A DNA stretch of 64,000 nucleotides from Brucella pseudogrignonensis (lineage in GTDB: Bacteria > Pseudomonadota > Alphaproteobacteria > Rhizobiales > Rhizobiaceae): the NCBI RefSeq assembly GCF_002252525.1, contig NZ_NNRM01000039.1:124001-188000 (forward strand), in the 5' to 3' direction. Each line of letters opens with the position of its first letter. Within the stretch, counting starts at the first letter, position 1. Under the pieces are notes generated by a model that saw only the letters and a list, made by a program, of their open reading frames with translations, was not told the origin of the DNA and did not search any database. Of the stretch, positions 1,901 through 47,677 are shown one piece after another. Made by a program: the position numbers and the translations under genes.

Positions 1901-1925
1901 GGAACATCCCCTTCCCCGCACGGTT
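1901..1925 (+). promoter_or_regulatory. EcfG-type promoter, exact consensus
   Basis: GGAAC at 1901-1905 and GTT at 1923-1925 separated by exactly 17 bases, matching the alphaproteobacterial general-stress sigma consensus GGAAC-N16/17-GTT. It precedes the small hydrophilic protein at 1985 and perhaps the sigma gene at 2228. Confidence 0.75.
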
Positions 1926-1984
1926 AGACTCCCATCACCCACGATAAATTCCAGCCACCAAGAATAAATGGGGAGGAAATCACG

Positions 1985-2170
1985 ATGGAACAAAATCATA
2001 ACCCGGGCAGTAGCCACCAACAACATGTCAAGGCTGGCCAGCAGAGTCTCAAAAACACCGGCAAACACGCCAGCAAAAGCGACGATAACAAACAGAATGT
2101 GTCATCGTCACCTGGCGGCAGCCATGAACTGCATGTCAAGGCCGGTCAACAAAGCCATAAAAATTCATAG
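1985..2170 (+). CDS. Small hydrophilic repeat protein (HVKAGQQS repeats)
   Basis: This 61-residue, very hydrophilic protein contains two copies of an HxxHVKAGQQSxKN-type unit (residues about 11-24 and 46-59), separated by a Lys/Ser/Asn linker. It has no signal or membrane segment. The composition (Gln, His, Lys, Ser, Gly; almost no hydrophobic residues) is that of a disordered, hydrophilin-like stress protein, reminiscent of KGG-repeat stress proteins but with a different core. It has a strong RBS (GGGGAGGAAA) and sits 60 bases behind an exact EcfG-type promoter. I infer a desiccation/osmotic role; no direct evidence. Confidence 0.72.
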   Translation: MEQNHNPGSSHQQHVKAGQQSLKNTGKHASKSDDNKQNVSSSPGGSHELHVKAGQQSHKNS

Positions 2171-2178
2171 TGTTAAAA

Positions 2179-2196
2179 GGGCAGCGTCCGCTGCCC
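2179..2196 (+). terminator. Stem-loop between repeat protein and sigma gene
   Basis: Perfect 7-bp stem GGGCAGC / GCTGCCC with loop GTCC, eight bases after the stop of the repeat protein. There is no poly-U run, so partial read-through into the sigma gene at 2228 is plausible. Confidence 0.35.
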
Positions 2197-2227
2197 GAAC
2201 CGGGCCTTACCCGGAAAGGCTGGACCA

Positions 2228-2740
2228 ATGTTATCCAGATCGCCTAATCATAATGCGTCCGACCCCGTGCTTGAACCAGATCAACTGGTCGCCATGATTC
2301 CTGCTTTGCGGGCCTTCGCGCGTAAATTCTACCGTGAAAGAGAGGACGTCGAGGATCTCGTTCAGGAAACACTCGTCAAAGCAATCGCCAATCGCAGCAA
2401 ATACGTCCCTTACGCGCCGCTGAAATCGTGGTTGTTTACCATCATGCGCAACACATTCTGCACGCGCATTCGGATTCAAACCCGCGAAGCGCCCGGACTT
2501 AATGACTGCATTTCGCAGGATATGGTGGTCAAACCGTCCCAGCAATACGCACTCGAAGCGCATGAGGTACAACTTGCCCTCGAGACATTGTCAGACAAGT
2601 ATCAGCAGGTTCTCGCTCTGGTGGTTTTTGAAGGCAAGTCCTATCAACGCACCGCTGAGCTCTGTGACTGCTCTGTCGGCACCGTCAAGAGCCGACTGCA
2701 TCGCGCTCGCCACCAGTTACACATGATCGTGGACGGGTGA
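2228..2740 (+). CDS. ECF sigma factor, EcfG-like (ECF15 type)
   Basis: A 170-residue ECF sigma factor. Region 2 is clear (residues 20-80: DVEDLVQETLVKAI, then APLKSWLFTIMRNTFCTRIR), and region 4 forms a helix-turn-helix (LSDKYQQVLALVVFEGKSYQRTAE, CSVGTVKSRLHRARHQL). The DLVQETL and LKSWLFTIMRN patterns are those of the EcfG/RpoE2 general-stress sigma group, which recognises GGAAC/GTT promoters. No nepR-like anti-sigma gene or phyR gene is visible next to it, unlike the canonical EcfG locus, so this is likely an accessory paralogue. The gene could be transcribed from the EcfG promoter at 1901, i.e. with positive feedback. A second paralogue is at 5679-6164. Confidence 0.9.
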   Translation: MLSRSPNHNASDPVLEPDQLVAMIPALRAFARKFYREREDVEDLVQETLVKAIANRSKYVPYAPLKSWLFTIMRNTFCTRIRIQTREAPGLNDCISQDMVVKPSQQYALEAHEVQLALETLSDKYQQVLALVVFEGKSYQRTAELCDCSVGTVKSRLHRARHQLHMIVDG

Positions 2741-2818
2741 TCGTTGAAATGACTGCGGCGCGGAAAACTTCTCGCGCGTGGCTTGCAAATTGCAATCAAC
2801 CATGGCCAACTCTCTGTA

Positions 2819-3211
2819 ATGGTTCAATCAAAGCGTTGCTCCCCGCATCTTTATCGCGGCAAGAAATTACTGATCTTCGAGGAAAGTTTCCTGCTGAGCG
2901 AGGAAGCAAAGACGAAGCTTATGGCGCTCGGCGCCTCCATTCTGGGACCCGTCGATAGCGCGAAAGGCATCCTCGCTTATCTGGCGAGCGAAACCGTCGA
3001 CGCGGTCATACTGGACGTAAGAATCGAACCGGAAATTGTCCTGCCGGTTATTTCAGCGCTGGAAACTCATCATATTCCCTTCATATTCGCGTTATCGATC
3101 CATCCAGGGCTTAATGGGCAGCGCTTTGCCGGCTTTGTGTTAAGCGCCGCTGACGACGATCTTGCAACCATCGCCACCGCATTGTTCGGACAACCTTCCC
3201 TGATGCACTGA
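2819..3211 (+). CDS. Degenerate single-domain response regulator
   Basis: The 130-residue product (start taken at ATG 2819, a site 36 bases upstream is also in frame) has a single receiver-like fold: beta1 KKLLIFEES, helix, GPVDSA, the phospho-acceptor-like Asp in AVILDVRI, and beta4 IPFIFALS. It resembles the alphaproteobacterial single-domain FATGUY-type regulators that feed the general stress response, but the motif here reads FALSI: the conserved Thr/Ser is Leu, and the conserved C-terminal Lys-Pro cannot be found. It is therefore probably a non-canonical or non-phosphorylated receiver. It lies 78 bases behind the EcfG-like sigma gene, which suggests a role in the same circuit; this is inference. 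Confidence 0.7.
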   Translation: MVQSKRCSPHLYRGKKLLIFEESFLLSEEAKTKLMALGASILGPVDSAKGILAYLASETVDAVILDVRIEPEIVLPVISALETHHIPFIFALSIHPGLNGQRFAGFVLSAADDDLATIATALFGQPSLMH

Positions 3212-3335
3212 CCGCGGTCGTAGCAAGAAATGCAGCCAGCCATTGCTGCAAAGCCTTCATCAACTTGCAGCTTGCCTTGCGACATTGTCTTAACGCCGCC
3301 CAAACGACTCTTCGACTTTGGCGCAGGCACGTGTT

Positions 3336-3351
3336 TGTCTGCTATCGTACA
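3336..3351. promoter_or_regulatory. Candidate Crp/Fnr-type operator A
   Basis: TGTCTGCTATCGTACA; its reverse complement TGTACGATAGCAGACA matches operators at 5302-5317 and 6231-6246 in a 16-bp imperfect palindrome with TGT/ACA ends, the geometry of Crp/Fnr sites. It lies about 100 bases before the Crp/Fnr gene at 3453. Confidence 0.5.
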
Positions 3352-3452
3352 GAAAAACCACGCCGGATCAGGGTGTTATAGATTGTTCCTCGTCGAATAG
3401 AATCGAGGGGGCGATGTGGTGCGGAGCGCGTTCCAGGCCCAAAGTAGGATAC

Positions 3453-4163: not shown

Positions 4164-4459
4164 GCGAGGAAAAACCTCTACCGCCTCGCCACATATGCGC
4201 AAATACCGTGCAAAGCCTTGATCACGGCCCGCCTGCGCGAAGCGCGCATTTCCTCTCTATAACAGGCACCTTGCTCGCCGGGGCTCCGCCAAACCTACAG
4301 CGTTGCTTGAAGAACGCGGTTTGTCTTCGCCCCGCGCCAGCCGGTCGGCTTCTTCACAACCGATCGAACTGCACCTCCCTCGATGCGCTTTGCGCCAAGA
4401 GCAGGATCGACCAACGTCTCATGAGCCGCCAGCCTGTTTGACTGCGTGCTCGACCCGCT

Positions 4460-5200
4460 TCACGCTGGCTGGACGCTTGCTTCTGAGCGCAGATCCTGCA
4501 TCAGACGACGATATTCCTGTTCTGCCCAGCCATAGGCACCACCGGCATAGGCCTCAAGCGCTTTGCGGTCTCGGATCACAATATTGTTTCGCAACGAGCG
4601 AATAAGCCCCAGTCCCTCCAGCACGTGAAGTGACGTCGTGACACTGGGTCGCCGCACAGCAAGCATGATGGAGAGAAACTCGTGCGTCAGCGCAATTTCT
4701 GAGCCTGAAATGCGGTCATCACACATCAAAAGCCAGCGCGCCAGACGCTGATTGATCTCGTGAATGGCGTTCGTCACCGCAGTTGAAGCCAGCTGCACCG
4801 AAAAGGCTTCGATCGCGCGGATCATCACCTTGGCAAAGCTGCGGCTCGTCTCCATCTGCTCTCGGAACCTGCGATAGGCCACCGCATAGCCCTGTCCCGC
4901 CACCTGCATGGTGACATCATAGGAACTGGTCTCGACACCTGCGACGGCGGATGTTGGCACATATCCATCCAGTCCAAACAGCCCAGCTTCTGCGCGGTGA
5001 CCCTCCTTCGTGGTCACGATCACCGAACCAATGCCCGCGGTTAGAAAATAGACGGTTTCGATTTCCTGGCCGGCTTGCGCCAGTATACGCCCGCGGGGAA
5101 GTTCGAGATAGCGCGCATGCCCGGCAATCGCATCGTAATCGGCTTGAGGAAGCAGAGACAGCAGCCGATTTTCCATATTTTGCAGCTCGGGAAATGTCAT
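4460..5200 (-). CDS. Crp/Fnr family transcriptional regulator 2
   Basis: The 246-residue product has a cNMP-binding-like beta-roll (LPRGRILAQAGQEIETVYFLTAGIGSV) and a C-terminal winged HTH (LTHEFLSIMLAVRRPSVTTSLHVLEGLGLI). The start at 5200 is chosen because an exact EcfG-type promoter lies at 5236-5260; a start further upstream at 5266 would lie above that promoter. It runs antiparallel to its paralogue at 3453-4163 across a 300-base gap in which I see no gene. A palindromic candidate operator at 5302-5317 is centred about 80 bases above the predicted transcription start, a plausible activator position. Likely role: second-tier regulator of the stress regulon; effector unknown. Confidence 0.9.
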   Translation of the reverse strand: MTFPELQNMENRLLSLLPQADYDAIAGHARYLELPRGRILAQAGQEIETVYFLTAGIGSVIVTTKEGHRAEAGLFGLDGYVPTSAVAGVETSSYDVTMQVAGQGYAVAYRRFREQMETSRSFAKVMIRAIEAFSVQLASTAVTNAIHEINQRLARWLLMCDDRISGSEIALTHEFLSIMLAVRRPSVTTSLHVLEGLGLIRSLRNNIVIRDRKALEAYAGGAYGWAEQEYRRLMQDLRSEASVQPA

Positions 5201-5235: not shown

Positions 5236-5260
5236 AACAAAGGCCTCCGGCTTTTGTTCC
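5236..5260 (-). promoter_or_regulatory. EcfG-type promoter, exact consensus
   Basis: On the minus strand GGAAC (5256-5260) and GTT (5236-5238) are separated by 17 bases, in front of the Crp/Fnr gene that starts at 5200. Confidence 0.75.
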
Positions 5261-5678: not shown

Positions 5679-6164
5679 TTAAGACGCTGTGTTCAGATCG
5701 GATTCCAGCTGCATGCGGGCCCGACACAGACGGCTTTTTATCGTGCCAATTGTGCAACCGCTCTCTGTCGCCGCATGTTCATAACTCAAGCCATTGAAGA
5801 CTACCAAATCAATGACATTGCGATGCCTTGCTGAGAGCTTGCTGTAAGCGCGGCCCACGTCCTGCAGTTCGATCGCCATTTCCTGCGGAGCGCTGATCGT
5901 TGGGCCCGTTTCATCCAGCAAAGGTGTTTCGCGACGCGCGCGTTTAATCCGGCTGCAAAAGCTGTTCTTCATGATGGTGAACAACCACGATTTGAGCGAG
6001 CCATAAGGCTGGTATTTATCCCGGTTTTTCAGGGCTTTGACCAAGGTCTCCTGAACGAGATCCTCTGCATCGGCGGATTGGCGACATAACGATCGCGCAA
6101 ACTGGGTCAAAGCGGGCAGAAGTTGCATCAACGCATCTTCGAAATCTGGCTGTGATAACATCAT
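5679..6164 (-). CDS. ECF sigma factor, EcfG-like paralogue 2
   Basis: A 161-residue ECF sigma factor close to the one at 2228-2740: region 2 contains DAEDLVQETLVKAL and GSLKSWLFTIMKNSFCSRIK, region 4 contains LSARHRNVIDLVVFNGLSYEHAA and CTIGTIKSRLCRARMQL. Tandem ATGs at 6164 and 6161 follow the RBS AGGGAGAGAG. The signature residues place it with the EcfG/ECF15 general-stress sigmas. No anti-sigma (NepR) gene adjoins it. A Crp/Fnr-type palindrome at 6231-6246 is about 70 bases upstream, so one of the two neighbouring Crp/Fnr proteins may control it. Two EcfG paralogues within 4 kb, each flanked by a Crp/Fnr gene, look like a duplicated module. Confidence 0.9.
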   Translation of the reverse strand: MMLSQPDFEDALMQLLPALTQFARSLCRQSADAEDLVQETLVKALKNRDKYQPYGSLKSWLFTIMKNSFCSRIKRARRETPLLDETGPTISAPQEMAIELQDVGRAYSKLSARHRNVIDLVVFNGLSYEHAATESGCTIGTIKSRLCRARMQLESDLNTAS

Positions 6165-7450: not shown

Positions 7451-7744
7451 TCAAAGAGCTAATCGGTTGACCGCTTCCGCGCGATAGCATTCGGCTCCAC
7501 CAATCTGCACGCGGAGAGCAGGCGATCCTGGATTGATCGGGTCTGGCGGAATTTCTACCGGCTGCGGAACATCGGGAGCAGGGTCCGGGCGATCGGGAAT
7601 ATCAGGACCAAGCGGTTCGGGTAAAATATCTGGCTGCTGCTCAGGCACGCTTGCCGGCGGAATATCGGGTATCTCAGGCTTGGGTTGCGGTGGTTGGGGG
7701 GGTGAACTCGCATGGGCTGGACGCAAGAATGGTTGGTAGGTCAT
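7451..7744 (-). CDS. Proline-rich low-complexity protein
   Basis: From ATG 7744 (RBS GAGGAGCG) the 97-residue product has a short N-terminus, then about 60 residues of PxxP/PDxP repeats (for example PDIPDRPDPAPDVPQP) and a short C-terminal part with one Cys. It is likely disordered. A start further upstream is excluded by the exact EcfG-type promoter at 7772-7796, which gives a leader of about 20 bases. No known domain. Proteins of this kind occur next to general-stress genes in rhizobia, but the role is unknown. Confidence 0.72.
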   Translation of the reverse strand: MTYQPFLRPAHASSPPQPPQPKPEIPDIPPASVPEQQPDILPEPLGPDIPDRPDPAPDVPQPVEIPPDPINPGSPALRVQIGGAECYRAEAVNRLAL

Positions 7745-7771: not shown

Positions 7772-7796
7772 AACCCGGTCGAACCCTCTTTGTTCC
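7772..7796 (-). promoter_or_regulatory. EcfG-type promoter, exact consensus
   Basis: Minus-strand GGAAC (7792-7796), 17-base spacer, GTT (7772-7774), driving the proline-rich gene that starts at 7744. Confidence 0.78.
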
Positions 7797-8079: not shown

Positions 8080-8496
8080 TCATGGGTCAATATAGCTTTC
8101 CACGCGCAGCTTCAGATCTTGATTGCGCGGATCTTTTGCAAAGAACAGCGCACCCTTGGTCTGGGCCTTCGATGCAACATAATCAAATGTCGCTTCGGCC
8201 TGCTCGCCACCCCCTTGCTGTTCGCCCACAATTCCGACAACCCGCACCTGGGCGGCGCTTGATCGTGTCAGATTGAATACAGAGAATGCGACACGATACC
8301 CATTTTCGACCGCGCTAAAATTCGTCACCTCAACACGGAAATCAGCTTTGTCTGGTTGATACTGATAGCTTTGATATCCCAGAAAGCCGAGCAGTGCGAC
8401 AATGAGCAGGGCGGATAGCGCGCCTGCAAGCCACTCACTCCAATGGACTTCCGCCCTCTTTGAATCAGACTTCGTGCTGTTGGCTCTCTTGTTCAT
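8080..8496 (-). CDS. TIGR02588 family single-TM protein
   Basis: The 138-residue product has a basic cytoplasmic N-terminus, one transmembrane helix (about residues 24-45, ALSALLIVALLGFLGYQSY) and a periplasmic beta-rich domain (ADFRVEVTNFSAVENGYRVAFSVFNLTRSSAAQVRVVG). This matches the conserved family TIGR02588, which is always found beside TIGR02587; here the two genes are separated by 9 bases. Start at 8496 has a GAGGCGG RBS. The pair probably forms a membrane complex of unknown function and is transcribed from the EcfG promoter at 9397-9421. Confidence 0.85.
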   Translation of the reverse strand: MNKRANSTKSDSKRAEVHWSEWLAGALSALLIVALLGFLGYQSYQYQPDKADFRVEVTNFSAVENGYRVAFSVFNLTRSSAAQVRVVGIVGEQQGGGEQAEATFDYVASKAQTKGALFFAKDPRNQDLKLRVESYIDP

Positions 8497-8505: not shown

Positions 8506-9360
8506 TCATAAAACCAGACGGGCAGACGCCGCGCCGATTGCTGCCGGAAACGACAGCACAATAATCGTTGTCACCATTTGCGTAAAAGAGGCTTCATCCA
8601 GCCGTTCAAAGGTCCATAATGTATAGGCACTGGTCGCAAAGGCCAGCACATAGCCGGGCAGCGTGAAACGAATGAGCGAATTCCACCACGGCGCTCCTTG
8701 CTTCACCCCATGTCCACCTTTGAAATGGACGCTATAGACAAAGCCATGCATGATGGCGATCGACGAAAGCAGGATCAGCGCAGTTTGAAGGGGGACAATC
8801 TTATAGGCAATCAGGATCATCTCCTCGGTGGGGGCCACATTCAATCCCAAAAATAGCGCTCCAACGACCATCATGAACAATTCGTTGAAATAGCCGCTTT
8901 CTCCCTCATATTCGCCAGGCTCTTCGTCATCCTCCTCTGAGCGCATCCCCAGTTGGCTTCGACCAAGCAAGGCACCAATACTGGCGGGCACAGCCTGAAG
9001 GGCAATCATCGCAACCATATGCTCAAACGGCAATTCGGGGCTCAACAGACCAAACAGCCAGAAGATCATCCCGCTCAACACGATGCCGAGCGCCAAGGCG
9101 ATCGCCGCATCCCTTAGCGTCTGTGTCCAGGTGGTCATCCGCTCAAAACCGATCCGATAGGCAAGCCCCACCAGCAACGGGATGTTCAACAGGCAGAGCA
9201 ACAACAACCGTAAAGGATTGGCATAAAGACCGAGCTCCCACATTTCCATCGTCATCAGCATCGGCAGTGCAAACAACAGCGCGCCGCCCAGACCGCGCGC
9301 CAGGCCTGTAAAAAAGTCGGGGTGGATCTTGGGAGAAAAAACGGTTGACGTGGAACGCAC
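8506..9360 (-). CDS. TIGR02587 family integral membrane protein
   Basis: A polytopic protein with about seven hydrophobic segments and an acidic loop (EEDDEEPGEYEGESG, near the middle), matching the TIGR02587 family. An ATG at 9408 is in frame, but an exact EcfG promoter at 9397-9421 overlaps it and would start the RNA near 9390. I therefore place the start at GTG 9360 (upstream GAGG), giving 284 residues. The conserved partner TIGR02588 follows immediately. The family has no assigned activity; the stress promoter implies a role in the general stress response. Confidence 0.82.
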   Translation of the reverse strand: MRSTSTVFSPKIHPDFFTGLARGLGGALLFALPMLMTMEMWELGLYANPLRLLLLCLLNIPLLVGLAYRIGFERMTTWTQTLRDAAIALALGIVLSGMIFWLFGLLSPELPFEHMVAMIALQAVPASIGALLGRSQLGMRSEEDDEEPGEYEGESGYFNELFMMVVGALFLGLNVAPTEEMILIAYKIVPLQTALILLSSIAIMHGFVYSVHFKGGHGVKQGAPWWNSLIRFTLPGYVLAFATSAYTLWTFERLDEASFTQMVTTIIVLSFPAAIGAASARLVL

Positions 9361-9396
9361 AATTAACACCTCATCATTGCGACCAGACAAATCTGA

Positions 9397-9421
9397 AACT
9401 GCCTTCACGGCAACATGTTCC
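9397..9421 (-). promoter_or_regulatory. EcfG-type promoter, exact consensus
   Basis: Minus-strand GGAAC (9417-9421), 17-base spacer, GTT (9397-9399). It drives TIGR02587-TIGR02588 and shows that the longest open frame of TIGR02587 is not the real one. Confidence 0.75.
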
Positions 9422-9479: not shown

Positions 9480-9504
9480 GGAACTTAAACCAAGGGCGGT
9501 AGTT
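9480..9504 (+). promoter_or_regulatory. EcfG-type promoter, exact consensus
   Basis: GGAAC (9480-9484), 17-base spacer, GTT (9502-9504), in front of the PepSY-like gene at 9541. It is divergent from the promoter at 9397-9421. Confidence 0.8.
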
Positions 9505-9540: not shown

Positions 9541-9861
9541 ATGAAAATCAGCGTTTTAGCGCTCGCTGGCGCTTGCCTTGTCGCGCCATCTCTTGCCTTT
9601 GCTCAGGATAGTGGTGCCACTTCACCGGAAACACCAGCCGTCTCGACCCCCGACAGCAAAAACCCGGATGCACCGGTCAAGGGTGCCAACAGCTTCACCG
9701 AAGATCAGGCCAAAAGCCGTATCGAAGAAGCTGGCTACAAAGATGTTACCGGTTTGAAGCTCCGTGAAGATGGCGTCTGGGAAGCCTCGGCGATGAAGGG
9801 CACTGAAAAGCTGGATGTCCAGCTTGATTACCAGGGCAACGTCACCAAGAAGGCGATGTAA
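9541..9861 (+). CDS. Exported PepSY-like protein
   Basis: The 106-residue product has a typical Sec signal peptide ending in AFA before QDSG (cleavage after about residue 21), a Pro/Ser-rich linker, and a C-terminal PepSY-type module of about 55 residues (SFTEDQAKSRIEEAGYKDVTG, then LREDGVWEA and VQLDYQGNV). It should be periplasmic. PepSY modules are thought to bind or inhibit proteases or to act as sensors. It is transcribed from an exact EcfG promoter and is followed 45 bases later by a glycine-rich stress protein gene. Confidence 0.85.
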   Translation: MKISVLALAGACLVAPSLAFAQDSGATSPETPAVSTPDSKNPDAPVKGANSFTEDQAKSRIEEAGYKDVTGLKLREDGVWEASAMKGTEKLDVQLDYQGNVTKKAM

Positions 9862-11787: not shown

Positions 11788-12951
11788 TCAGCCATTGGGT
11801 CTCATCACAACCTTGATGCAGCCATCCTGTTTGTCGCGAAACCTCTTATAGGCCTCGGGGCCGTCTTCAAGACCGACGCGGTCCGTGATCAAAAAGGATG
11901 GGTCGATCTTTCCTTCTAAGATTAACTGCAACAACGGCTCGAGATAGCGCTGCACATGGGTTTGTCCTGTCTTCAAGGTGAGCCCCTTGCCGACCACCGC
12001 CCCCAGTGCCGTTGGAACTGCAGACCCTACGAATACCCCGGGAATCGACACTGTGCCACCCGGCCGACAAGCGAGAATTGCCTGGTTTAGGGCATATGGC
12101 CGTTCACTGGCGGTAAGGTTTGATTGGAGGGTTTCGATCACTCCGCCCGCTCCGTGACTTTCCATGCCCACTGCTTCGATGACCGCATCCGGGCCCTGTC
12201 CGTTTGTCAGATCGATGATCTGCTGCTGAAGCTCTTCACTTGTATAATCCAACACCTGAGCCCCTGCCTGCCGGGCCAAGGCGAGCCGTTCGGGAATGGT
12301 GTCAATCGCTATTACTTTCTCCGCACCCAGGAGGAAGGCCGACTTAATTGCAAAAAGGCCAACGGGGCCACAGCCGAAAACCGCAACGCTCTGTCCTGGC
12401 CGAATGTCGCAATTCTCCGCCGCCATATATCCGGTTGGAAAAATGTCTGACAAAAAGAGAACCTGGTCATCGCTGAGCGCGTCCGGTATCACGACCGAGC
12501 CGACATCAGCGAAAGGCACCCGGAGATACTGCGCCTGCCCACCTGGAAAACGTCCGTAGAGTTCGGAGTAACCAAATAGACCGGCGGTTGGATAACCGAT
12601 CTGCTTGGCCTGCATGGCAGCTTTCGGATTTGAACGTTCGCAGAGCGAAAAAAGCCCACTGCTACACATTCGACATGCGCCGCATGAAATCGTAAAAGGC
12701 ACAACGATGCGGTCGCCTACTTTCAACTTGCTATTTCCTCTGCCCACCTCCACCACTTCGCCCATGGTTTCGTGGCCCATAATGTCGCCAGCATGCATCC
12801 CTGGTACAAAGCCACCATAAAGATGCAGGTCAGAGCCACAGATGGCACAGCTTGTCACCTTGATGATCGCATCGCGCTCATCCTGGATGATCGGATCGTC
12901 GACTTCCTCACAACGTATGTCGCCAGTACCGTGCCACGTTAACGCCTTCAT
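11788..12951 (-). CDS. Zinc-dependent alcohol dehydrogenase, formaldehyde-dehydrogenase-like
   Basis: A 387-residue MDR-superfamily enzyme. The catalytic zinc ligands are visible in CAICGSDLH and GHETMGEV near residues 37-66, the structural zinc cysteines in SCGACRMCSSGLFSLC (about 89-104), and the Rossmann motif in VAVFGCGPVGLFA. Length and the insertion after the structural zinc resemble the glutathione-independent formaldehyde dehydrogenase group. It would oxidise alcohols or aldehydes with NAD+. RBS GGGAGAAG. An exact EcfG promoter lies at 13059-13083, about 110 bases upstream, so it belongs to the stress regulon. Confidence 0.9.
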   Translation of the reverse strand: MKALTWHGTGDIRCEEVDDPIIQDERDAIIKVTSCAICGSDLHLYGGFVPGMHAGDIMGHETMGEVVEVGRGNSKLKVGDRIVVPFTISCGACRMCSSGLFSLCERSNPKAAMQAKQIGYPTAGLFGYSELYGRFPGGQAQYLRVPFADVGSVVIPDALSDDQVLFLSDIFPTGYMAAENCDIRPGQSVAVFGCGPVGLFAIKSAFLLGAEKVIAIDTIPERLALARQAGAQVLDYTSEELQQQIIDLTNGQGPDAVIEAVGMESHGAGGVIETLQSNLTASERPYALNQAILACRPGGTVSIPGVFVGSAVPTALGAVVGKGLTLKTGQTHVQRYLEPLLQLILEGKIDPSFLITDRVGLEDGPEAYKRFRDKQDGCIKVVMRPNG

Positions 12952-13879: not shown

Positions 13880-15985
13880 TCACAGTTTGACTGCGGTTTC
13901 ACGCGCCCAGACACGCAATTTCGCGCAGGCCGCGTAAAAATGATGGATAGCATCCTCGTCCTCAAGAGACATCAGCCCATCATCCAGATCTGGATCGATA
14001 CCGGCCAGATCAAGCAGCGGCACAGCTCCTTTGCTGAACGCTATGAATTTGCAGTGCGCAAAGGCATCTCCGACAAAATCGCGCGCCGTCGCTTCTCCGC
14101 ATAAACGTTGCGCTGCCTCTTCGCTCAGCACAAGTGCGACAGCGTCGAACAGGACCGATGGACCGCCATCGATCATATAATCACCTTCAATCAAGCTGCC
14201 CTCCTGGGCGACCACACCGCCAACCTTTGGTGCAATCACCTCAACGACCGCACCCTTGGCTTCGAAATGCTGCTTCAGACTGTTGAACAATTCGCGATCG
14301 CTGCCCGGACCAACGAGCACACCCAGTTTCCGACCGGCAAAGTCCGCGGGGCCATTCTTGACGATACTGAGCGCCGCCGACACTTCAAGATCCTTGCGCG
14401 GCGCGACAGCCGCATCGGCCGCCGCAGGCATGGTCTGCAGGCCAAGCTTATCAGCGACGGTGGTCGCCAGACCCTCATCAATGTTGAGAAGGTGTGACAC
14501 CATTCTCTCCCGGATCCGAACATTTTCGCATCGGCTTAATTCAAACGTCAGGGCAGCGGCGATATGGTGTTGTTCCACTTCGGTCTGACTGATGAAAAAC
14601 TGGCGTGCCTGGCTATAGTGATCCGCAAAGCTTTCCGGGCGGAGCCGGAGCTTTTTTCCCTCTTCCTCCGCCGGATAGGTGGTGAAACCAGTCGGCGGAT
14701 CTTCACGCGGCCCCTCCTCCCATGAATTGGGCTGATAATTGACCCGCCCCACCGGATTGCGCACCGCCATATGCCCATCCTGCTGAAAATGGTGGAATGG
14801 GCATTTGGGTGCGTTGATCGGCAGATGTGTGAAATTCGTGCTTCCCAGCCTCTTGAGCTGCGTATCGAGATAGGAAAAATTACGGCCCTGCAACAGGGGA
14901 TCATTCGAGAAATCAATGCCCGGCGGCACATTCTGCGTCATGAACGCAACCTGCTCTGTCTCCGCAAAGAAATTGTCCGGCATCCGGTCCAACACCATGC
15001 GGCCAACCGGGATGGGCGCCAGGATCTCTTCCGGGATAATCTTGGTGGGATCGAGCACATCAAAATCAAATTGATCGGCGAATTGCTGATCGAATAATTG
15101 GAGATTGAGTTCCCATTCGGGGAAGTTTCCCGCAGAAATTGCGTCCCACAGATCACGACGGTGGAAATCGGGATCAGCCCCATTGATCTTGACTGCTTCG
15201 TTCCAAACAACCGACTGCATGCCCAATTTCGGTTTCCAGATAAATTTCACGAATGTGGATTCGCCCCTGGCATTGACCAGACGGAACGTGTGGACCCCAA
15301 ATCCTTCCATGAAACGGAAAGAGCGCGGTATGGCGCGGTCAGACATCACCCACATGATCATATGCATGGATTCCGGCGTAAGGCTGATGAAATCCCAGAA
15401 ATTGTCATGCGCGGATTGCGCTTGCGGGAAACCGCGATCCGGTTCCGGCTTCACCGCGTGAATGATGTCCGGGAATTTGATCGCGTCCTGAATGAAGAAG
15501 ACCGGTATATTGTTGCCGACAAGATCCCAGTTTCCTTCCTGGGTGTAGAATTTGACGGCGAAACCGCGCACGTCCCGCGCCAGATCAAACGATCCTTTCG
15601 AGCCCGCCACCGTGGAAAAGCGGACAAAAACCGGCGTTTTCTCGCCAGCACGCTGAAAAAGATCTGCCCGTGTATAGGCAGCCAGCGACGCATAATTCTC
15701 GAAATAGCCATGCGCGCCATATCCCCGTGCATGAACCACACGTTCGGGAATGCGCTCATGATCGAAATGAAAAATTTTCTCCCGAAAATGAAAATCCTCC
15801 ATGAGAACCGGGCCGCGCGACCCGATCTTGAGACTGTTCTGATCGTCCGCTATCGGTACGCCCTGGGCGGTGGTCAGCCGCGCCTTGCCCTCCTCGACAG
15901 TCTGATGAAGCTCTCCTCCCGCCCCTCTTTGAAGCTTCTGGTCGTGAATCGTGGCGGTTGCTGGCTGGCTTTTCCTGGCTGGCAT
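13880..15985 (-). CDS. katE: Catalase HPII, large-subunit monofunctional catalase
   Basis: The 701-residue length and the C-terminal flavodoxin/GATase-like domain ([18 protein letters not shown] onward, about residues 560-701) identify a large-subunit (clade 2) heme catalase. The active-site His is in [15 protein letters not shown], the [11 protein letters not shown] motif and the distal Asn region ([11 protein letters not shown]) are present, and the proximal heme Tyr lies in [12 protein letters not shown]. It dismutates hydrogen peroxide in the cytoplasm. RBS GGGAGAGAG. An exact EcfG promoter at 16016-16040 drives it, as for many stationary-phase catalases. The gene appears intact. Confidence 0.97.
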
Positions 15986-16015: not shown

Positions 16016-16040
16016 AACCCGCCGATTGGTTCAAGGTTCC
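16016..16040 (-). promoter_or_regulatory. EcfG-type promoter of katE, exact consensus
   Basis: Minus-strand GGAAC (16036-16040), 17-base spacer, GTT (16016-16018), 31 bases before the katE start. Confidence 0.85.
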
Positions 16041-16290
16041 CTAATCTTTAAGACAAAGCCGCATTTCGCTGTCACATCCCACCCAGCCACGAGGTTCGGC
16101 GGACATCTCATCCCAAATTGCGACCAATGCAGTGGAGGGAGCGCGAAACATTTTGCAGTTGCTGTGGTTAGGTCAACCGCGACAATACCGATCCATAGCC
16201 GGTCAATGGCGCGGGTATGGCCGCGCCCCGACACCAAGAAACAGTTGGGTGCACCCGGACTGTGCCGGTATAGACAACAAAGGAATCATC

Positions 16291-17955: not shown

Positions 17956-17980
17956 GGAACAAAGCTGTTGCGCATTGGTT
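17956..17980 (+). promoter_or_regulatory. EcfG-type promoter, exact consensus
   Basis: GGAAC (17956-17960), 17-base spacer, GTT (17978-17980), upstream of two very small open frames and the DUF3008 gene. Confidence 0.75.
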
Positions 17981-18977: not shown

Positions 18978-19002
18978 AACATCGCAGCGGTTCGAATGTT
19001 CC
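18978..19002 (-). promoter_or_regulatory. EcfG-type promoter, exact consensus
   Basis: Minus-strand GGAAC (18998-19002), 17-base spacer, GTT (18978-18980), in front of the exported protein gene at 18629-18928. Confidence 0.78.
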
Positions 19003-34648: not shown

Positions 34649-34673
34649 AACAGTGGCCGTCCAAAACAGTTCC
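34649..34673 (-). promoter_or_regulatory. EcfG-type promoter, exact consensus but orphan
   Basis: Minus-strand GGAAC (34669-34673), 17-base spacer, GTT (34649-34651). No convincing gene follows within 150 bases, so it is either a chance match or the promoter of a small RNA or micro-protein. Confidence 0.35.
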
Positions 34674-36673: not shown

Positions 36674-36698
36674 GGAACCAAACGGTTCAGGATCGGTT
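36674..36698 (+). promoter_or_regulatory. EcfG-type promoter, exact consensus
   Basis: GGAAC (36674-36678), 17-base spacer, GTT (36696-36698), 35 bases before the small gene at 36733. Confidence 0.72.
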
Positions 36699-36732: not shown

Positions 36733-36933
36733 ATGCGCCTTCACAATCACCTGCTACGTGCAGCCCATCGCGCCGTTGCCAGAAAGAAGACACAGGCTTT
36801 GCATCCGGCGCAGGCCATTGGAGAGGCGCTGCAGGAACTCAGCCAGCTGCCTTCATCGACGCAGGACCTGGACTTCGATGAGCTGCTGCAACGTTTGCAG
36901 GAGGCGGAGGGAAAACCGCCCAAAGAGCAGTAG
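36733..36933 (+). CDS. Small soluble protein, unknown function
   Basis: From ATG 36733 the 66-residue product is basic at the N-terminus (RLHNHLLRAAHRAVARKK) and acidic, helical at the C-terminus (LDFDELLQRLQEAEGKP). A longer in-frame extension upstream is unlikely because an exact EcfG promoter lies at 36674-36698 within it. The RBS is weak (GGAAAGATGG). No family recognised; size and charge would suit a small regulatory or anti-sigma-like protein, but that is only a guess. Confidence 0.55.
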   Translation: MRLHNHLLRAAHRAVARKKTQALHPAQAIGEALQELSQLPSSTQDLDFDELLQRLQEAEGKPPKEQ

Positions 36934-41276: not shown

Positions 41277-42010
41277 TCATTTTTTGGCAGCCACGGCGCG
41301 ATTGAAATCTTCAATTACCCGGGCCCGATTGCTGTTGATTTCATTCCAGTTGGGAAGCGACAGGTTATTTACACTGCCATCAACACCCCAGGGCATTTTC
41401 TGCTTTGCATTGTCAGAAAATTCAACGCCTTTGGTCGCCGGGCCGACGAAAATCCGCTCAGACATGCATTGCGCGGCCGCCTTGCTCACAGCGAAATCGA
41501 TGAACTTCTCCGCAGCTTTCCGGCGCGGCGTATCGGCAACCAGTTGCAACCGGATATCGCCACCAATCGCGCCCTCCTCCGGCACGACGAAATCGATCAG
41601 CAGTCCCTGGTCACGCATAGCAAATGCCGAACTGGCATAATACGCCCCAGCGATGACCTCACCGCTCTGGAACAAATTGGTGCCTGCCCCGGCCGTATCG
41701 AAATAGGCCGCGACCCGCAATTTATGAATTGAATCGAAAACCGGACCCATCACGCTGAGCGGTTTGCCCTTCTACTTGGCCAGCTCCGCCAGGAACGGTA
41801 CGCTCGTCACATTGGCCGGGCTTGGAAATGTCACCGCACCCTCATAATCAGGCCGCCATAAATCCTGCCACGATCTGGGTGGCGTCTCCACCTGGTCTTT
41901 GTTGTAGACCAGACCGAGCGAGTAAAAGCCGGTGCTCACCGCCAAAATATTGCCAGCTTCATCCTTGTAGGCGAGATTGATAGCGCGGGCAACACGCCGT
42001 TCCTGCGTTC
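41277..42010 (-). pseudogene. Truncated ABC-transporter substrate-binding protein
   Basis: The frame encodes the C-terminal two thirds of a spermidine/putrescine- or iron-type binding protein: GFYSLGLVYNKDQVETPPRS, then WQDLWRPDYEGAVTFPSP, and in the lower part VAAYFDTAGAGTNLFQSGEV and FIDFAVSKAAAQCMSE. A TAG stop interrupts it at 41,772-41,774 (after AELAK), and the N-terminal lobe with the signal peptide is missing upstream of about 42,010. No permease or ATPase genes remain beside it. Inactive. Confidence 0.85.
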
Positions 42011-42317
42011 AGTCAGACAAAGCGACCGGCTGCAAATGTGACCCATCCCCAATAGCTATCGCTAAATGTCGCAAATCGTGCCGACCGCGGTATTCACTTT
42101 TGTTTTGATGTTTCAAGATGTCTCTCACGTCTTCGAATGGCTGGGGCGACCCTGATCGTGCTGTCGCTTTCCTGCTGGAACCTACCCGGGAGAGCCTGAC
42201 TGGACAGGCTCCGCCAAGACGGGCCCTCAGCCCAGATGACTGCACGGTGAAACAGCCCGATCCAGCCTGATCAGCAACATTGCCCGGCGCTCAGATGCCC
42301 GCAATGCTTCAACACCA

Positions 42318-42479
42318 TCAACCAAGCTGGCGCCCGAACAGGAACGTTGCAGCAGCGACGCAGCCGATCACCCCAAGATAGAGCAGCTTATAAGGCGCAG
42401 GCATCGGCAACTTCACTGCAAGATAGGCAAAGGGGCCGCAGAGCATGATTGTAAACAAAGCAATCGCTACGGTCATCAT
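42318..42479 (-). pseudogene. Two-TM membrane fragment
   Basis: A 53-residue frame with two hydrophobic segments (TVAIALFTIMLCGPFAYLAV and LLYLGVIGCVAAATFLFG). It has no RBS, and the hydrophobic sequence continues upstream in frame, so it is more likely the C-terminal remnant of a larger transporter than a free gene. It lies in a zone of pseudogenes. Confidence 0.35.
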
Positions 42480-43039
42480 GCCGCCGACAACAAAGAAATA
42501 CTGAACAACTGCCGTGCGTCGGACCCTTGGTCAGCGGATGCAAAAATTTTCATGAGATAGGATCTAGGATATTTCCGCACCAGGCACAACCATGGGCGCG
42601 CTTGCGCTCAACCAATCAGCGAGCGCTTCCAGTTTCCCGTTCAGCTTTCTCGGCACGGCTTCGCCGCCAGTTTGATAGCGCGCCTTCGGAATGGAAGCCG
42701 CTTTCGAACAGCGCTATTGCAGGCCGCAGCTGTCCGCAGAACTAGGGCTGCTGCCGCGTGTTAAAAGCGGCCCCGATCGCGGCAATGGATGGACCGGATA
42801 AGCGTGGAAGCACTCGACGCCTTTCTGTAGGACCGCGACCCTGATATCCGCTTTAGCGCCACAACCGAACTGATCAGACTTGGGCAGCTGCAGGTGCCGG
42901 AAAGCCTCGAACCCCAGCAAGGCTCATTGCTATAATTCCCCAGCACCGTGCGGCGCTCTGCGGAGCCCGGCTTCCGTGCAGCTTAATTTCAACCGCCTGT
43001 CTGCCGGCCGGGATGCTGCGGCGACACCGTCTGTGGCAT
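42480..43039. other. Stretch with eroded sequence, no gene
   Basis: About 560 bases without a supported reading frame, between two pseudogenes. Some frames have coding-like composition, but none shows a start or a recognisable family. Confidence 0.4.
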
Positions 43040-43942
43040 TGCCCGCACGAACAATGAAGGCACGCAGCGGCGAGGGCACCAGACGCCGCCCGGGATAATA
43101 GAGAAAAGGCCCGAAAAGCGCACCCACCAGTGCTCCATGATCGACGAAAGCGCTCCAGTTTGAAAATCCGCTGTCAGCCAATCTTCAAACAGACACAGAA
43201 TACCAAGCCCTGCCTTCGACGCCTCGATCTCCAGATTGGTGGCCCCACCGGACTGCACAATAAGCCGGCCGGTCGGCTCAATGAGCACCACCTCCCCATT
43301 GCGTTAAAACTCCCAGGCCGGGATCGCACGACCCGCAAAACGATCGCGAATATAATCATGGACCAGCAGATCCTGCGGCGTTTTCGGGGTGCCTCGCGCA
43401 GCCAGATACTCTGGTGATGCCGCAAGCGCAAAGCGCTGCTCGCGCGGGCCGATTGGCACAGCAATCATGTCATGTTCCAGCCGCTCGTCATAGCGAATAC
43501 CCGCGTCACACCCACTTTCGATGATGTCGATAAAGTTCTCATCGGTGACGATCTCCAGACGGATATCGGGATAGGCCATCAAAAACGCCGGCACGACACG
43601 TGGCAGCACAAGCCGCGCTGCACTGGGTGGAACATTGAACTTCAGAGATCCAGCAGCGCGATTGCCGTGACTGGTCGCCTGGTCAAGCGCTGATCCTATA
43701 TCGGGAAAGGCCGGGCCCAGCCGTTCGATCAATATCCGTCCAACCTCGGTCGGCAGTACACTGCGGGTGGTGCGGTGGAGAAGACGCAGGCCCAGGTCAC
43801 TTTCCAGACGTTTAACCGCATCACTGAGCGACGAGTAACTGCGTCCGCCAATCCGTGACGCCTCGCGAAAACCACGCGCCCGTGCCCAGTAAAATGCCTC
43901 GTTGTCCGCCAGGGCGGACAACCCAACCGATTGTTGGTTCAA
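43040..43942 (-). pseudogene. Broken LysR family regulator
   Basis: The 5' two thirds (43,942 to 43,304) encode a LysR protein: SYSSLSDAVKRLESDLGLRL, LLHRTTRSVLPTEVG, and an effector domain to GRAIPAWEF, where TAA stops it. The same frame then continues with VVLIEPTGRLIVQSGGATNL and GLGILCLFEDWL, and a further frameshift near 43,105 moves the LysR C-terminal motif (FLYYPGRRLVPSPLRAFI) to another frame. At least two disabling lesions. It lies divergent to the broken aldo/keto reductase, its former target. Confidence 0.85.
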
Positions 43943-43984: not shown

Positions 43985-44858
43985 ATGCCAGGCACCCCGA
44001 TTTCAGCCACCTACAGGCTGGGTGAAAACCCATTCTCGCGAATGGGCTACGGCGCGATGCAGCTTGCAGGCAAGGGCGTCTTCGGGCCAGTACGCGATCG
44101 TGCCAAAGCCATTGCAGTGCTGCGTGAAGCGTTCGAGAGGGGCATCAATCATATCGACACCAGTGATTTCTATGGCCCGCATATCACCAACCAGATCATC
44201 CGGGAAGCCTTGCATCTCTATGCCGATCCGGTGGTGATGGTGACCAAGGTCGGCGCCGTACGCGGCGCGGATGCGTCCTGGAATCCGGCATTTTCCCGCG
44301 TCGAACTCACACAGGCCGTACATGACAATCTGCGCAATCTTGGCCTGGATGTTCTCGACGTTGTCAATCTGCGCGCCATGTTCGATTTCCATGTACTTCC
44401 GAAGGAGCCCTGGAGGAACCGCTCAGCGTGCTTGCCGATCTCAAGCGTCAGGAGCTGATCCGAAATATCGGCCTATCGAATCTCACGGCACAGCAGATCG
44501 ACGACTGCCGGATTGTGACAGATATCGTCTGTGTGCAGAATCAGCACAATTTGGTTCATCGCGCGTATGACAGCCTGATTGATAAGCTTGTTGCAGAACA
44601 GATCGCCTCTGTTCCATTCTTTCCGCTCGCCGGCTTTTCACCCATCCAGTTCTCTGCCCTCACCGCTGTCGCGCAACGCCCATGCAAGTGGCCTTGTCCT
44701 GGCTGCTCAGACGTTCACCCAATATCCTGCTGATCCCTGGCACCGCTTCACGATTGCATCTGCGCGAAAACCTTTCCGCCCGCAGCATCGAACTGCAATA
44801 TGCGCTGTCCGAACTTGACGCGCTCTCGGCGCAACCAGGCGCTGCGCAGCAAAATTGA
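43985..44858 (+). pseudogene. Broken aldo/keto reductase
   Basis: Begins as a normal aldo/keto reductase (MGYGAMQLAGKGVFGPVRDR, NHIDTSDFYGPHITNQIIRE, VMVTKVGAVRGADASW with the catalytic Asp, Tyr and Lys). Near 44,400 the frame shifts (to PLSVLADLKRQELIRNIGLS, NLTAQQIDDCRI), and near 44,660 it shifts again (to VALSWLLRRSPNILLIPGT). The last frame ends at 44,858. Two frameshifts make it inactive. The divergent LysR pseudogene beside it was probably its regulator. Confidence 0.88.
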
Positions 44859-46057: not shown

Positions 46058-46063
46058 ATGTCG

Positions 46064-46522: not shown

Positions 46523-46540
46523 GGCAACGCAATGTCGGCA

Positions 46541-46825
46541 TTATCGGCTCTGGGCACCCGGTGCTGCCGGCCGATCACCCGCCGTTTTTGCCTTCTGGCT
46601 GCCTTTGTCGCCTGGTATATCCGCGACTGGCTGCGACGGGGGACTGGCGCCCGATTTTGATTGAACCAAGCGTGTCAAGGAAACCGATGCGCCGCCCAGG
46701 AATGTCCAGGCCAGAAAAACGACGATCAGAACGGCAAACAGCAACAGCACCAGGCGCGGGACGTAACGAAACAGCTGCGGTGCCGTGCCTGCTACTTTAC
46801 GCTGTTTGGCAACATTCCCATTCAT
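46541..46825 (-). CDS. Small single-TM protein with Pro/Ala-rich tail
   Basis: From ATG 46825 the 94-residue product has a basic N-terminus (NGNVAKQRKVAG), one TM helix (VLLLFAVLIVVFLAWTFLGG) and a disordered tail (PPSQPVADIPGDKGSQKAKT). It overlaps the stop of the upstream gene (46822-47094) by ATGA. Both are transcribed from an EcfG promoter at 47113-47137. Function unknown. Confidence 0.6.
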   Translation of the reverse strand: MNGNVAKQRKVAGTAPQLFRYVPRLVLLLFAVLIVVFLAWTFLGGASVSLTRLVQSKSGASPPSQPVADIPGDKGSQKAKTAGDRPAAPGAQSR

Positions 46826-47094
46826 TGCCACACCCATGAAACAAGCAAATATCCAATAATGCCCGCTGCAATCATCAGCCACCAGATAAGATATGCGGGT
46901 CGTTCGCGCAATGGCACTTCCCCCGAAACGGGTCTCGGATCGCGGGCCCGCCACGCACGCAGTGGAGAGCCATGACTGGACGCATTGTTGTCATGCGGCT
47001 CGACCGATCGCGGTGTCGGATCGCAGTCAACAGGCTTTATGGCGCCGCGCAGCCGCGCACCGGCAGTTTTGTCTGCGAATAGATCTCTTGCCAT
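46822..47094 (-). CDS. Small C-terminally anchored protein
   Basis: The 90-residue product has a hydrophilic N-terminal part (ARDLFADKTAGARLRGAIKP, HDNNASSHGSPLRAWRARD) and a single C-terminal TM helix (LIWWLMIAAGIIGYLLVSWV). It is the first gene after the exact EcfG promoter at 47113-47137, about 20 bases upstream, and is coupled by ATGA to the next small membrane protein. The two probably act together at the membrane under stress; family not recognised. Confidence 0.65.
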   Translation of the reverse strand: MARDLFADKTAGARLRGAIKPVDCDPTPRSVEPHDNNASSHGSPLRAWRARDPRPVSGEVPLRERPAYLIWWLMIAAGIIGYLLVSWVWQ

Positions 47095-47112
47095 GCTTCA
47101 CTTCTGGCCCCT

Positions 47113-47137
47113 AACCGCAGGATCCTGCGATTGTTCC
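47113..47137 (-). promoter_or_regulatory. EcfG-type promoter, exact consensus
   Basis: Minus-strand GGAAC (47133-47137), 17-base spacer, GTT (47113-47115), before the two small membrane protein genes. Confidence 0.78.
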
Positions 47138-47234
47138 CGAGCGTTCGGATCGACACGCCCCCCTCGCCCACGCCGCGCCGGGCCGGGCAGCGCCTTCGGA
47201 GCGGGCGGTCCGCTATTTGTTGAAGCGACAGGCG

Positions 47235-47259
47235 GGAACACTGTGGCGCTTGGGCAGTT
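47235..47259 (+). promoter_or_regulatory. EcfG-type promoter, exact consensus
   Basis: GGAAC (47235-47239), 17-base spacer, GTT (47257-47259), 63 bases before the SemiSWEET gene and divergent from the promoter at 47113. Confidence 0.75.
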
Positions 47260-47321
47260 GGGCTCTCAAGACGCAATTTCAAAGCGCCGCAGCCCACAGC
47301 CCCAACCCTGATTGAGACAGC

Positions 47322-47576
47322 ATGGATATAGCCCTGATCATTGGTTACCTGGCTTCGATATGTTCGGTGACCAGTTTCATTCCCCAGGTAATCAAGGTCA
47401 TCCAAACCGCCGACACTGCAGCCATTTCAGCACGGATGTATATGGTGACCGTTATCGGCTTCGCACTATGGACAATATTCGGCTTTCTGCGGATGGAATG
47501 GCCAATCATTCTCACCAACACGGCCTGCTTTTTCCTCTCCGGCTATATCTTGCTGCGCAAATTGTGGGCATCGTAA
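47322..47576 (+). CDS. SemiSWEET sugar transporter
   Basis: The 84-residue product has three TM helices and the PQ-loop of the SemiSWEET family: ASICSVTSFIPQVIKVIQTA near residues 11-30 with the PQ motif, then SARMYMVTVIGFALWTIFGF and ILTNTACFFLSGYILLRKLW with the conserved Asn. Length is typical. SemiSWEETs work as dimers in the inner membrane and transport sugars (sucrose/glucose-type) by facilitated diffusion. An EcfG promoter at 47235 puts it into the stress regulon, for instance for osmoprotectant sugars (inference). Confidence 0.95.
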   Translation: MDIALIIGYLASICSVTSFIPQVIKVIQTADTAAISARMYMVTVIGFALWTIFGFLRMEWPIILTNTACFFLSGYILLRKLWAS

Positions 47577-47652
47577 AGCCAGCCGAGGCAACCAGCCTCA
47601 TTTGGGCAACGACAATCAACGCCCCAAAGGCGACCCTGTGCCGGTTTGTCTG

Positions 47653-47677
47653 GGAACCATCGAAACCCGTCAGAGTT
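47653..47677 (+). promoter_or_regulatory. EcfG-type promoter, exact consensus
   Basis: GGAAC (47653-47657), 17-base spacer, GTT (47675-47677), 37 bases before the exonuclease III start at 47714. Confidence 0.75.

What the first reader, a model, noticed from the sequence alone, without database searches (positions are those of the whole stretch)
1901..47677. An EcfG general-stress regulon island: fourteen exact GGAAC-17-GTT promoters
Exact GGAAC-N17-GTT sites stand at 1901, 5236(-), 7772(-), 9397(-), 9480, 13059(-), 16016(-), 17956, 18978(-), 34649(-), 36674, 47113(-), 47235 and 47653. About two matches are expected by chance in 64 kb on both strands. Thirteen lie within roughly 110 bases upstream of a gene in the right orientation. 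Targets include katE, exonuclease III, SemiSWEET, TIGR02587/88, a Crp/Fnr regulator, a zinc alcohol dehydrogenase and many unnamed small proteins, which this assigns to the general stress response. Four further sites have GAAAC at -35 (13120, 20112, 21568, 35154), perhaps a paralogue-specific variant.
Basis: partly seen in the sequence, partly recalled or inferred. Interest (0 to 1): 0.75.

Follow-up and report, generated by a model that had tools for sequence, protein, structure and literature searches.

The report
Stress-gene island with variant EcfG promoters
A cluster of bacterial stress genes of about 55 kb, many of them preceded by the same switch sequence, surrounds two spare copies of the stress sigma factor, and the switch differs at one position from that of the main sigma factor, which may be how the copies tell their genes apart.

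Summary
All 14 sites are present, a 15th was missed (6323+), and 1.4 are expected by chance. The cluster begins 7 kb left of the window: 20 exact sites in 56 kb, all 20 intergenic, 16 within 110 bp of a gene start in the right orientation. Several promoters are conserved in related species while their spacers diverge.

The reading shifts. The genome's phyR-nepR-ecfG locus is on another contig. The island holds two accessory EcfG-like sigma genes (2228-2740+, 5679-6164-). Around main ecfG genes of ten relatives the base before GTT is C at 56 of 66 sites (CGTT); around 25 accessory sigmas at 31 of 120, which is background; in the window at 0 of 15. Genomes with an accessory sigma average 9.4 variant sites, those without 3.0; held-out genomes agree.

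Best explanation: non-canonical (EcfG2-type) sigma factors sit in islands of their own promoters, GGAAC(A)-N17-GTTnGG, and do not require the canonical C. A 2021 review calls this pattern "yet to be determined". There are no expression data for this genome; which sigma reads which site is inferred.

The parts
2228..2740 (+). accessory EcfG-like sigma factor A (170 aa)
   Evidence: Pfam Sigma70_r2, Sigma70_r4_2 and PhyR_sigma2 over cut-off; same-genus orthologue 72-73%
5679..6164 (-). accessory EcfG-like sigma factor B (161 aa), 50% identical to A
   Evidence: Pfam Sigma70_r2 and PhyR_sigma2 over cut-off; genome searches
2819..3211 (+). receiver-like protein downstream of sigma A
   Evidence: Response_reg E 0.087 here and 6e-4 in the same-genus homologue, both under the cut-off; synteny kept, 54%
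1901..1925 (+). promoter of the small-protein plus sigma A operon (GGTT): candidate autoregulation
   Evidence: present before sigma A in 5 of 5 genomes of the group, this one included, with diverged spacers
1985..2170 (+). 61-aa KAGQQS-repeat protein, first gene after site 1901
   Evidence: homologues 64-67% behind the same promoter in three relatives
5236..5260 (-). promoter (TGTT) 35 bp before Crp/Fnr gene 4460-5200
   Evidence: the R. etli homologue (39%) has no site
   Evidence: a site is present at one of two homologues
7772..7796 (-). promoter (GGTT) 27 bp before 97-aa ORF 7451-7744
9397..9421 (-). promoter (AGTT) of the TIGR02587/TIGR02588 pair 8506-9390 and 8080-8496
9480..9504 (+). 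promoter (AGTT) 36 bp before PepSY-like gene 9541-9861, followed by YflT gene 9907
   Evidence: present in 4 of 4 genomes of the group that have the gene, this one included, and in L170
13059..13083 (-). promoter (GGTT) 107 bp before zinc alcohol dehydrogenase 11788-12951
   Evidence: a 58% homologue in L130 has a site 25 bp upstream, the 28% R. etli one has none
16016..16040 (-). promoter (GGTTAGG) 30 bp before katE-like catalase 13880-15985
   Evidence: the 80% homologue in L170 has no exact site
16145..16169 (+). GAAAC-type promoter of the FMN-reductase-like gene (start about 16249 or 16291, end 16917)
   Evidence: GAAAC kept in 3 of 3 genomes, this one included
17956..17980 (+). promoter (GGTTAGG) 250 bp before DUF3008 gene 18231-18422
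   Evidence: found before 2 of 5 homologues
18978..19002 (-). promoter (TGTTAGG) 49 bp before 99-aa ORF 18629-18928
34649..34673 (-). site (TGTT) with no convincing gene; possible small RNA or chance
   Evidence: no Rfam hit in the window
36674..36698 (+). promoter (GGTT) 34 bp before 66-aa ORF 36733-36933
47113..47137 (-). promoter (GGTTAGG) 18 bp before 90-aa ORF 46822-47094
   Evidence: kept at 17-20 bp in two relatives
47235..47259 (+). promoter (AGTT) 62 bp before SemiSWEET 47322-47576
47653..47677 (+). promoter (AGTT) of exodeoxyribonuclease III gene 47681-48505 (start may lie further in)

Best explanation
Window positions 1 to about 48 kb, with 7 kb to the left, form a stress-gene island whose genes are transcribed from ECF15-type promoters. 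The promoters are read mainly by the accessory (EcfG2-type) sigma factors encoded in the island, not chiefly by the chromosomal EcfG. The accessory sigma recognises GGAAC (often GGAACA), 17 bases, then GTT, often followed by nGG. Unlike the main EcfG of this order it does not demand C before GTT. SHOWN from sequence: the sites, their spacing, intergenic and oriented placement, conservation with diverged spacers, the base difference between main and accessory loci, and the association of the variant motif with presence of an accessory sigma across genomes. INFERRED: that sigma A (and/or B) initiates there; that a residue beside the melting wedge in region 2.4 (Glu in 11 of 11 main, Thr/Ser/Ala in 31 of 31 accessory proteins aligned) helps read the C; that sigma A is autoregulated through site 1901; and that main EcfG feeds in through the CGTT sites before topoisomerase IB, one Ku gene and the HWE-kinase operon left of the window.
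For: Excess and spacing. Local excess: window 23 per 100 kb, genome 3.9. 20 of 20 intergenic where 33% of the island is intergenic; 16 of 20 within 110 bp in the right orientation, 1 of 20 on the wrong strand, 3.4 expected. GGAACN17GTTAGG occurs 4 times in the genome, all in the window. Same density around accessory sigmas elsewhere: 120 sites in 25 loci against 16 expected from genome rates and 24 for the reversed pattern; 165 against 21 in 27 further named Hyphomicrobiales loci, but 14 against 13 in the 32 most distant loci. R. etli plasmids around ecfG2: CFN42 15 sites in 49 kb, 2 preceded by C, reversed 1; CIAT 652 9 in 40 kb, none preceded by C, reversed 0. Base before GTT: C 56/66 main against 31/120 accessory, Fisher 4e-15; per locus C-majority 10/10 against 5/24. 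Genomes with an accessory sigma (49) average 9.43 variant sites, without (150) 3.01; reversed control 6.41 and 5.67. The 22 accessory genomes not used to derive the motif average 9.27, control 7.0. Within genera 12 up, 1 down, 1 tie, control 7 up and 7 down. Orthologous promoters conserved. Main EcfGs form one clade, 100/100. In R. etli each sigma prefers its own promoter, no motif was found for EcfG2 targets, and 1 of 19 EcfG2 units has the EcfG1 motif (PMC3892343).
Against: No transcription data for this genome. Five of 24 accessory loci have C-majority sites, and Neorhizobium-type loci also use N18. The 66 main sites include orthologous promoters of related genomes, so they are not independent. 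Main EcfG in other orders tolerates non-C: M. extorquens C/GGTT, Sphingomonas GGAAC-N17-20-GTT, so non-C sites alone do not prove a different reader. R. etli katG, an EcfG2-dependent gene, has no such site, and R. etli ecfG2 has none on its own strand. S. meliloti RpoE5 overexpression raised a single target (whether RpoE5 is in this clade was not tested). Three Caulobacterales loci have C at 7 of 9 sites. G073 has 16 variant sites without a detected accessory sigma, while G148, G060 and G036 have one but only 1-2 sites. The Glu/Thr column is one of 22 that separate the two groups.
Confidence: 0.7

Rival explanations
1. The island is an ordinary cluster of general-stress genes read by the chromosomal EcfG; the accessory sigmas only amplify, and the missing C reflects weak or relaxed promoters.
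For: Main EcfG of Sphingomonas and Methylobacterium accepts non-C -10 boxes. In S. granuli changes toward CGTT raised output with either paralogue, and the two seem to share targets. Three of the 20 island sites are CGTT.
Against: In this order main-locus sites are 85% C; density and motif follow the accessory sigma across genomes and within genera; R. etli EcfG1 did not directly stimulate the ecfG2 promoter in E. coli.
Confidence: 0.2
2. Sigma A and sigma B split the island: one reads GGAAC, the other GAAAC promoters. (This is a refinement of the best explanation, not exclusive of it.)
For: GAAAC is enriched in the island, 17.9 per 100 kb against 2.8 in sampled background of this genome, and the GAAAC/GGAAC identity of a gene's promoter is kept between species of the group (DUF892 5 of 5, FMN reductase 3 of 3).
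Against: DUF892 has GGAAC in three more distant genomes (R. etli, L170, L179); A and B agree at 10 of the 22 columns that separate main from accessory proteins, which settles nothing; GAAAC could simply be a weaker -35 kept for dosage.
Confidence: 0.15
3. Chance or composition effect.
For: Genome-wide the pattern is no commoner than its reverse.
Against: No shuffle of 100 reached the count; 20 of 20 intergenic; conservation with diverged spacers.
Confidence: 0.01

Closest known systems
Rhizobium etli EcfG2 (PF00052, plasmid p42f), the non-canonical EcfG
   Same: Accessory ECF15 sigma without nepR/phyR beside it; sigma A 44-49% identical; its locus also carries a dense GGAAC-N17-GTT cluster with few C (2 of 15); ferritin-like (a DUF892 homologue), DUF4142 and Crp/Fnr genes nearby. 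That the annotated sigma at p42f 54673-55200 is PF00052 is my identification from position and similarity.
   Different: R. etli ecfG2 has no exact site on its own strand, whereas sigma A has one (1901). Two accessory sigmas sit in one island here.
Canonical EcfG / RpoE2 with PhyR-NepR
   Same: Same sigma family (PhyR_sigma2 similarity), same -35 GGAAC and the same distance to GTT.
   Different: Main copy is on contig C3 with phyR and nepR; its promoters in relatives carry CGTT (56 of 66).
Sphingomonas melonis Fr1 EcfG regulon
   Same: EcfG-dependent genes listed include Ku, topoisomerase IB, catalase, Zn-alcohol dehydrogenase and a cAMP-binding regulator, as in this island (passages; the catalase and dehydrogenase there have poor motif scores); motif GGAAC-N17-20-GTT.
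   Different: That strain is described as having one EcfG paralogue; the passages I saw describe no island.
Sinorhizobium meliloti RpoE5
   Same: Second ECF15 sigma, gene activated by the main RpoE2 (passages).
   Different: Overexpression gave one target; clade membership not tested here.

Membership tests
ECF15 / EcfG sigma factor | sigma2-sigma4 ECF architecture with similarity to the PhyR sigma-like domain | tested here: met
   sigma A and B over Pfam cut-offs incl. PhyR_sigma2
ECF15 / EcfG sigma factor | closest solved relative is an EcfG | tested here: inconclusive
   best PDB hit 5uxx, E 1.1e-28, titled only 'RNA polymerase sigma factor'; that it is an EcfG is recalled
canonical EcfG (EcfG1) | gene next to nepR and phyR | tested here: not met
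   the single NepR hit and the best PhyR hit are on contig C3
canonical EcfG (EcfG1) | falls in the main EcfG clade | tested here: not met
   11 main proteins form one clade, 100/100, excluding A and B
canonical EcfG (EcfG1) | promoters GGAAC-N16-CGTT | tested here: not met
   0 of 15 window sites and 3 of 20 island sites have the C; that A or B reads them is inferred
non-canonical EcfG2 subgroup (R. etli) | similar to R. etli EcfG2, no nepR/phyR beside the gene | tested here: met
   44-49% identity; no NepR or PhyR hit on C32; R. etli EcfG2 was not placed in my tree
non-canonical EcfG2 subgroup (R. etli) | plasmid-borne | tested here: inconclusive
   no RepC on contig C32, but the 330-kb contig is not closed
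EcfG | held by NepR and released by phosphorylated PhyR | not testable with these tools
   needs binding assays

The most novel reading that the evidence does not exclude
Across Hyphomicrobiales the EcfG2-type sigma factors are a second, promoter-insulated layer of the general stress response. Each sits in a dense island of its own GGAAC(A)-N17-GTTnGG promoters. In many genera the sigma gene itself is switched on by a canonical CGTT promoter (14 of 21 sites just upstream of accessory sigmas have C, against 90 of 277 elsewhere in the same loci). The split in reading depends on a column next to the melting wedge of region 2.4, Glu in main and Thr in accessory proteins.
Probability: 0.45. Interest if true: 0.78.

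Novelty: new variant of a known kind. Interest (0 to 1): 0.62.

Why it matters
[quoted passage not shown] This finding proposes that pattern, a residue that may set it, and a way to predict accessory regulons (DNA repair, catalase, ferritin-like and many unnamed small proteins) from sequence alone.

Tried and rejected
R. etli katG as a positive control: no site upstream; its EcfG2 dependence may be indirect. R. etli ecfG2 as an autoregulation control: no exact site on its own strand. Naming the organism: nearest named sigma A relatives are Ochrobactrum sp. RH2CCR150 (74%), Brucella pituitosa (70%) and Falsochrobactrum shanghaiense (65%), but the island DNA is too diverged (71-74% over short stretches) to fix the genus. 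Replicon type: RepC on contigs C36 (two), C37, C38 and C40, none on C32, undecided. Rfam and tRNA scans of the window: nothing. Rejected: a strict non-C rule (3 of 20 island sites are CGTT); chance.

Counts and selections: accessory set = 25 of the 28 relative loci returned besides the window's own and G119's; main set = 10 loci I chose from genomes of that search. Six loci of L146-L193 (L176, L183, L185, L191, and the two dropped) entered no group total; the three Caulobacterales did. Genomes were split at E 1e-35, a cut chosen. The pattern was derived in part from 27 of the 49 accessory genomes; one search gives the other 22 apart. In one search, 6 of the 14 genera have an accessory genome not used to derive it (5 up, 1 tie). 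The C48 sigma was left out of the alignment. Gene starts come from my own caller plus ten hand-added ORFs.
Full report
1. THE OBSERVATION. GGAAC-N17-GTT occurs 15 times in the window (1.37 expected; no shuffle of 100 reached it). The 14 listed coordinates are right; 6323(+) was missed. Only spacing 17 is in clear excess. In the genome (5.53 Mb, 53 contigs; window = contig C32:124001-188000) there are 216 matches and 215 for the reversed pattern, so the excess is local. C32 has 29, of which 20 lie in C32:116.5-172.5 kb: five sites precede the window at -6775, -5168, -5126, -2807 and -2482. Of these 20, all are intergenic (33% of the island is), and 16 lie within 110 bp before a gene start on the same strand, against 1 on the opposite strand and 3.4 expected for random intergenic positions. 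Of 22 sites elsewhere on C32 and in the sampled parts of C3 and C8, 8 are intergenic. Gene starts are from my own caller plus hand-added ORFs, so distances are approximate.

2. WHAT IS IN THE ISLAND. Behind sites: Crp/Fnr (4460), isochorismatase-like (6435), TIGR02587/88 (8506, 8080), PepSY-like and YflT (9541, 9907), Zn-ADH (11788), katE-like catalase (13880), DUF3008 (18231), SemiSWEET (47322), exonuclease III (47681) and several unnamed ORFs. Left of the window: topoisomerase IB, two Ku proteins, and a small ORF plus PAS-HWE kinase. Sphingomonas melonis EcfG-dependent genes include Ku, topoisomerase IB, catalase, Zn-ADH and a cAMP-binding regulator (PMC6599016, passages only), so the content fits a general stress regulon.

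3. THE SIGMA FACTORS. The only NepR hit, the best PhyR hit and the main EcfG lie together on contig C3. The island encodes sigma A (2228-2740+) and sigma B (5679-6164-), 50% identical; a third (45%) is on a 12-kb contig, C22. In a tree of 43 proteins the 11 main EcfGs form one clade (100/100); A and B fall outside it. Of 40 inner branches 13 are well supported, so relations among accessory proteins are uncertain.

4. A DIFFERENT -10. I fetched up to +-10 kb around accessory sigmas of 25 relatives and around main ecfG of 10. Sites: 120 in 494 kb (16 expected from genome rates, 24 reversed) and 66 in 191 kb (5.6 expected over the nine loci with a known rate, 5 reversed). The base before GTT is C in 56 of 66 main and 31 of 120 accessory sites (Fisher 4e-15). 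Any GTT in the accessory loci is preceded by C in 34%, so accessory sites show no preference for C. Per locus, C is the majority in 10 of 10 main and 5 of 24 accessory loci with sites. Accessory sites also favour A after GGAAC (55%, main 17%) and G at the second and third base after GTT (47% and 49%). In the islands of the window's genome and of G119, C is 5 of 39. In named genomes: 27 Hyphomicrobiales loci, 165 sites against 21 reversed, C 52; 12 Rhodobacterales loci, 52 against 16, C 19; 3 Caulobacterales loci, 9 against 0, C 7; the 32 most distant loci (30 outside Alphaproteobacteria), 14 against 13. Around R. etli ecfG2: CFN42 15 sites in 49 kb, 2 with C; CIAT 652 9 in 40 kb, 0 with C.

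5. GENOME-LEVEL TEST. GGAACH-N15-D-GTTNGG was counted in 199 genomes of the family. The 49 with an accessory-type sigma average 9.43, the 150 without 3.01; reversed control 6.41 and 5.67 (Mann-Whitney 2e-16 and 0.17). The motif had been derived partly from 27 of those 49; the other 22 average 9.27, control 7.0. Within 14 genera that have both kinds, 12 go up, 1 down, 1 tie (p 0.003); control 7 up, 7 down. Exceptions: G073 (16 sites, no accessory sigma detected) and G148, G060, G036 (sigma present, 1-2 sites).

6. CONSERVATION. The promoter before sigma A is kept in the window's genome, G119, Ochrobactrum RH2CCR150, B. pituitosa and Falsochrobactrum as GGAAC..GGTT with diverged spacers; the PepSY promoter in 4 of 4 and the 90-aa gene's promoter in 3 of 3 genomes of this group with the gene; DUF3008's in 3 of 5. 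DUF892 has GAAAC in 5 of 5 of this group but GGAAC in R. etli, L170 and L179; the FMN-reductase-like gene has GAAAC in 3 of 3. Not kept: katE homologue in L170 and Crp homologue in R. etli have no exact site.

7. MECHANISM. In Mtb SigH the -10 is GTT; N88 is the wedge, I91 and N92 read the G pair (PMC6411747, passages). By the alignment, sigma A N75 matches N88 and T76 follows it. That column is Glu in 11 of 11 main and Thr, Ser or Ala (29, 1, 1) in 31 of 31 accessory proteins; SigH also has Thr and its -10 is given as GTT without C. I infer that Glu helps demand C; 21 other columns also separate the groups, so this is a guess guided by structure. Sites within 250 bp upstream of accessory sigma genes are usually CGTT: 14 of 21 against 90 of 277 elsewhere (p 0.003), and 7 of 8 sites within 100 bp in the unnamed set; related species are included, and many loci have no site there (18 of 41, 23 of 32). 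So in many genera main EcfG may switch on the accessory sigma, which then reads the island. In the window's group the sigma A operon instead has a GGTT site, suggesting autoregulation, with CGTT sites at topoisomerase IB, one Ku and the kinase operon.

8. LITERATURE. PMC3892343 (abstract, sections 18, 19, 23 and passages): EcfG1 motif GGAAC-N16-CGTT; no motif for EcfG2 targets; each prefers its own promoter. PMC8103513 (passages): pattern yet to be determined. PMC4814048, PMC7083833 and PMC6180224 (passages) report C/GGTT, flexible -10 boxes, and a single RpoE5 target. The papers listed by the searches (titles and abstract starts, plus passages of the papers named here) describe no accessory-EcfG -10 variant or promoter island that I saw; subscription papers are mostly not held.

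Noticed in passing
window 41277-43300 and 43985-44458, 29071-29750: Short pieces of transporter-like (by eye), aldo/keto reductase and PAS/GGDEF genes suggest decayed genes inside the island.
   Followed up: no
G000:C22 (12.3 kb), sigma at 1294-1731(-): A third accessory EcfG-like sigma on a small contig that has three exact sites (1872, 4905, 11857), perhaps a piece of another island.
   Followed up: partly
L109, L111, L125, L149-L153, L155, L158: Neorhizobium-type and a few other accessory loci also hold 4 to 10 GGAAC-N18-GTT sites each, suggesting a spacer shift in some clades.
   Followed up: partly
G086:C76:41168-59822: Ten exact sites in 18.7 kb on a contig other than that of its best accessory sigma: another island.
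   Followed up: no
window 34649-34673(-): Exact site without a gene downstream; candidate EcfG-dependent small RNA.
   Followed up: no
L105, L108, L109, L110, L117, L122 and others: Recurrent genes behind accessory-island sites, named by eye from sequence: DUF4142-like, HWE kinases, DUF892, Ku, glycogen/trehalose enzymes.
   Followed up: partly
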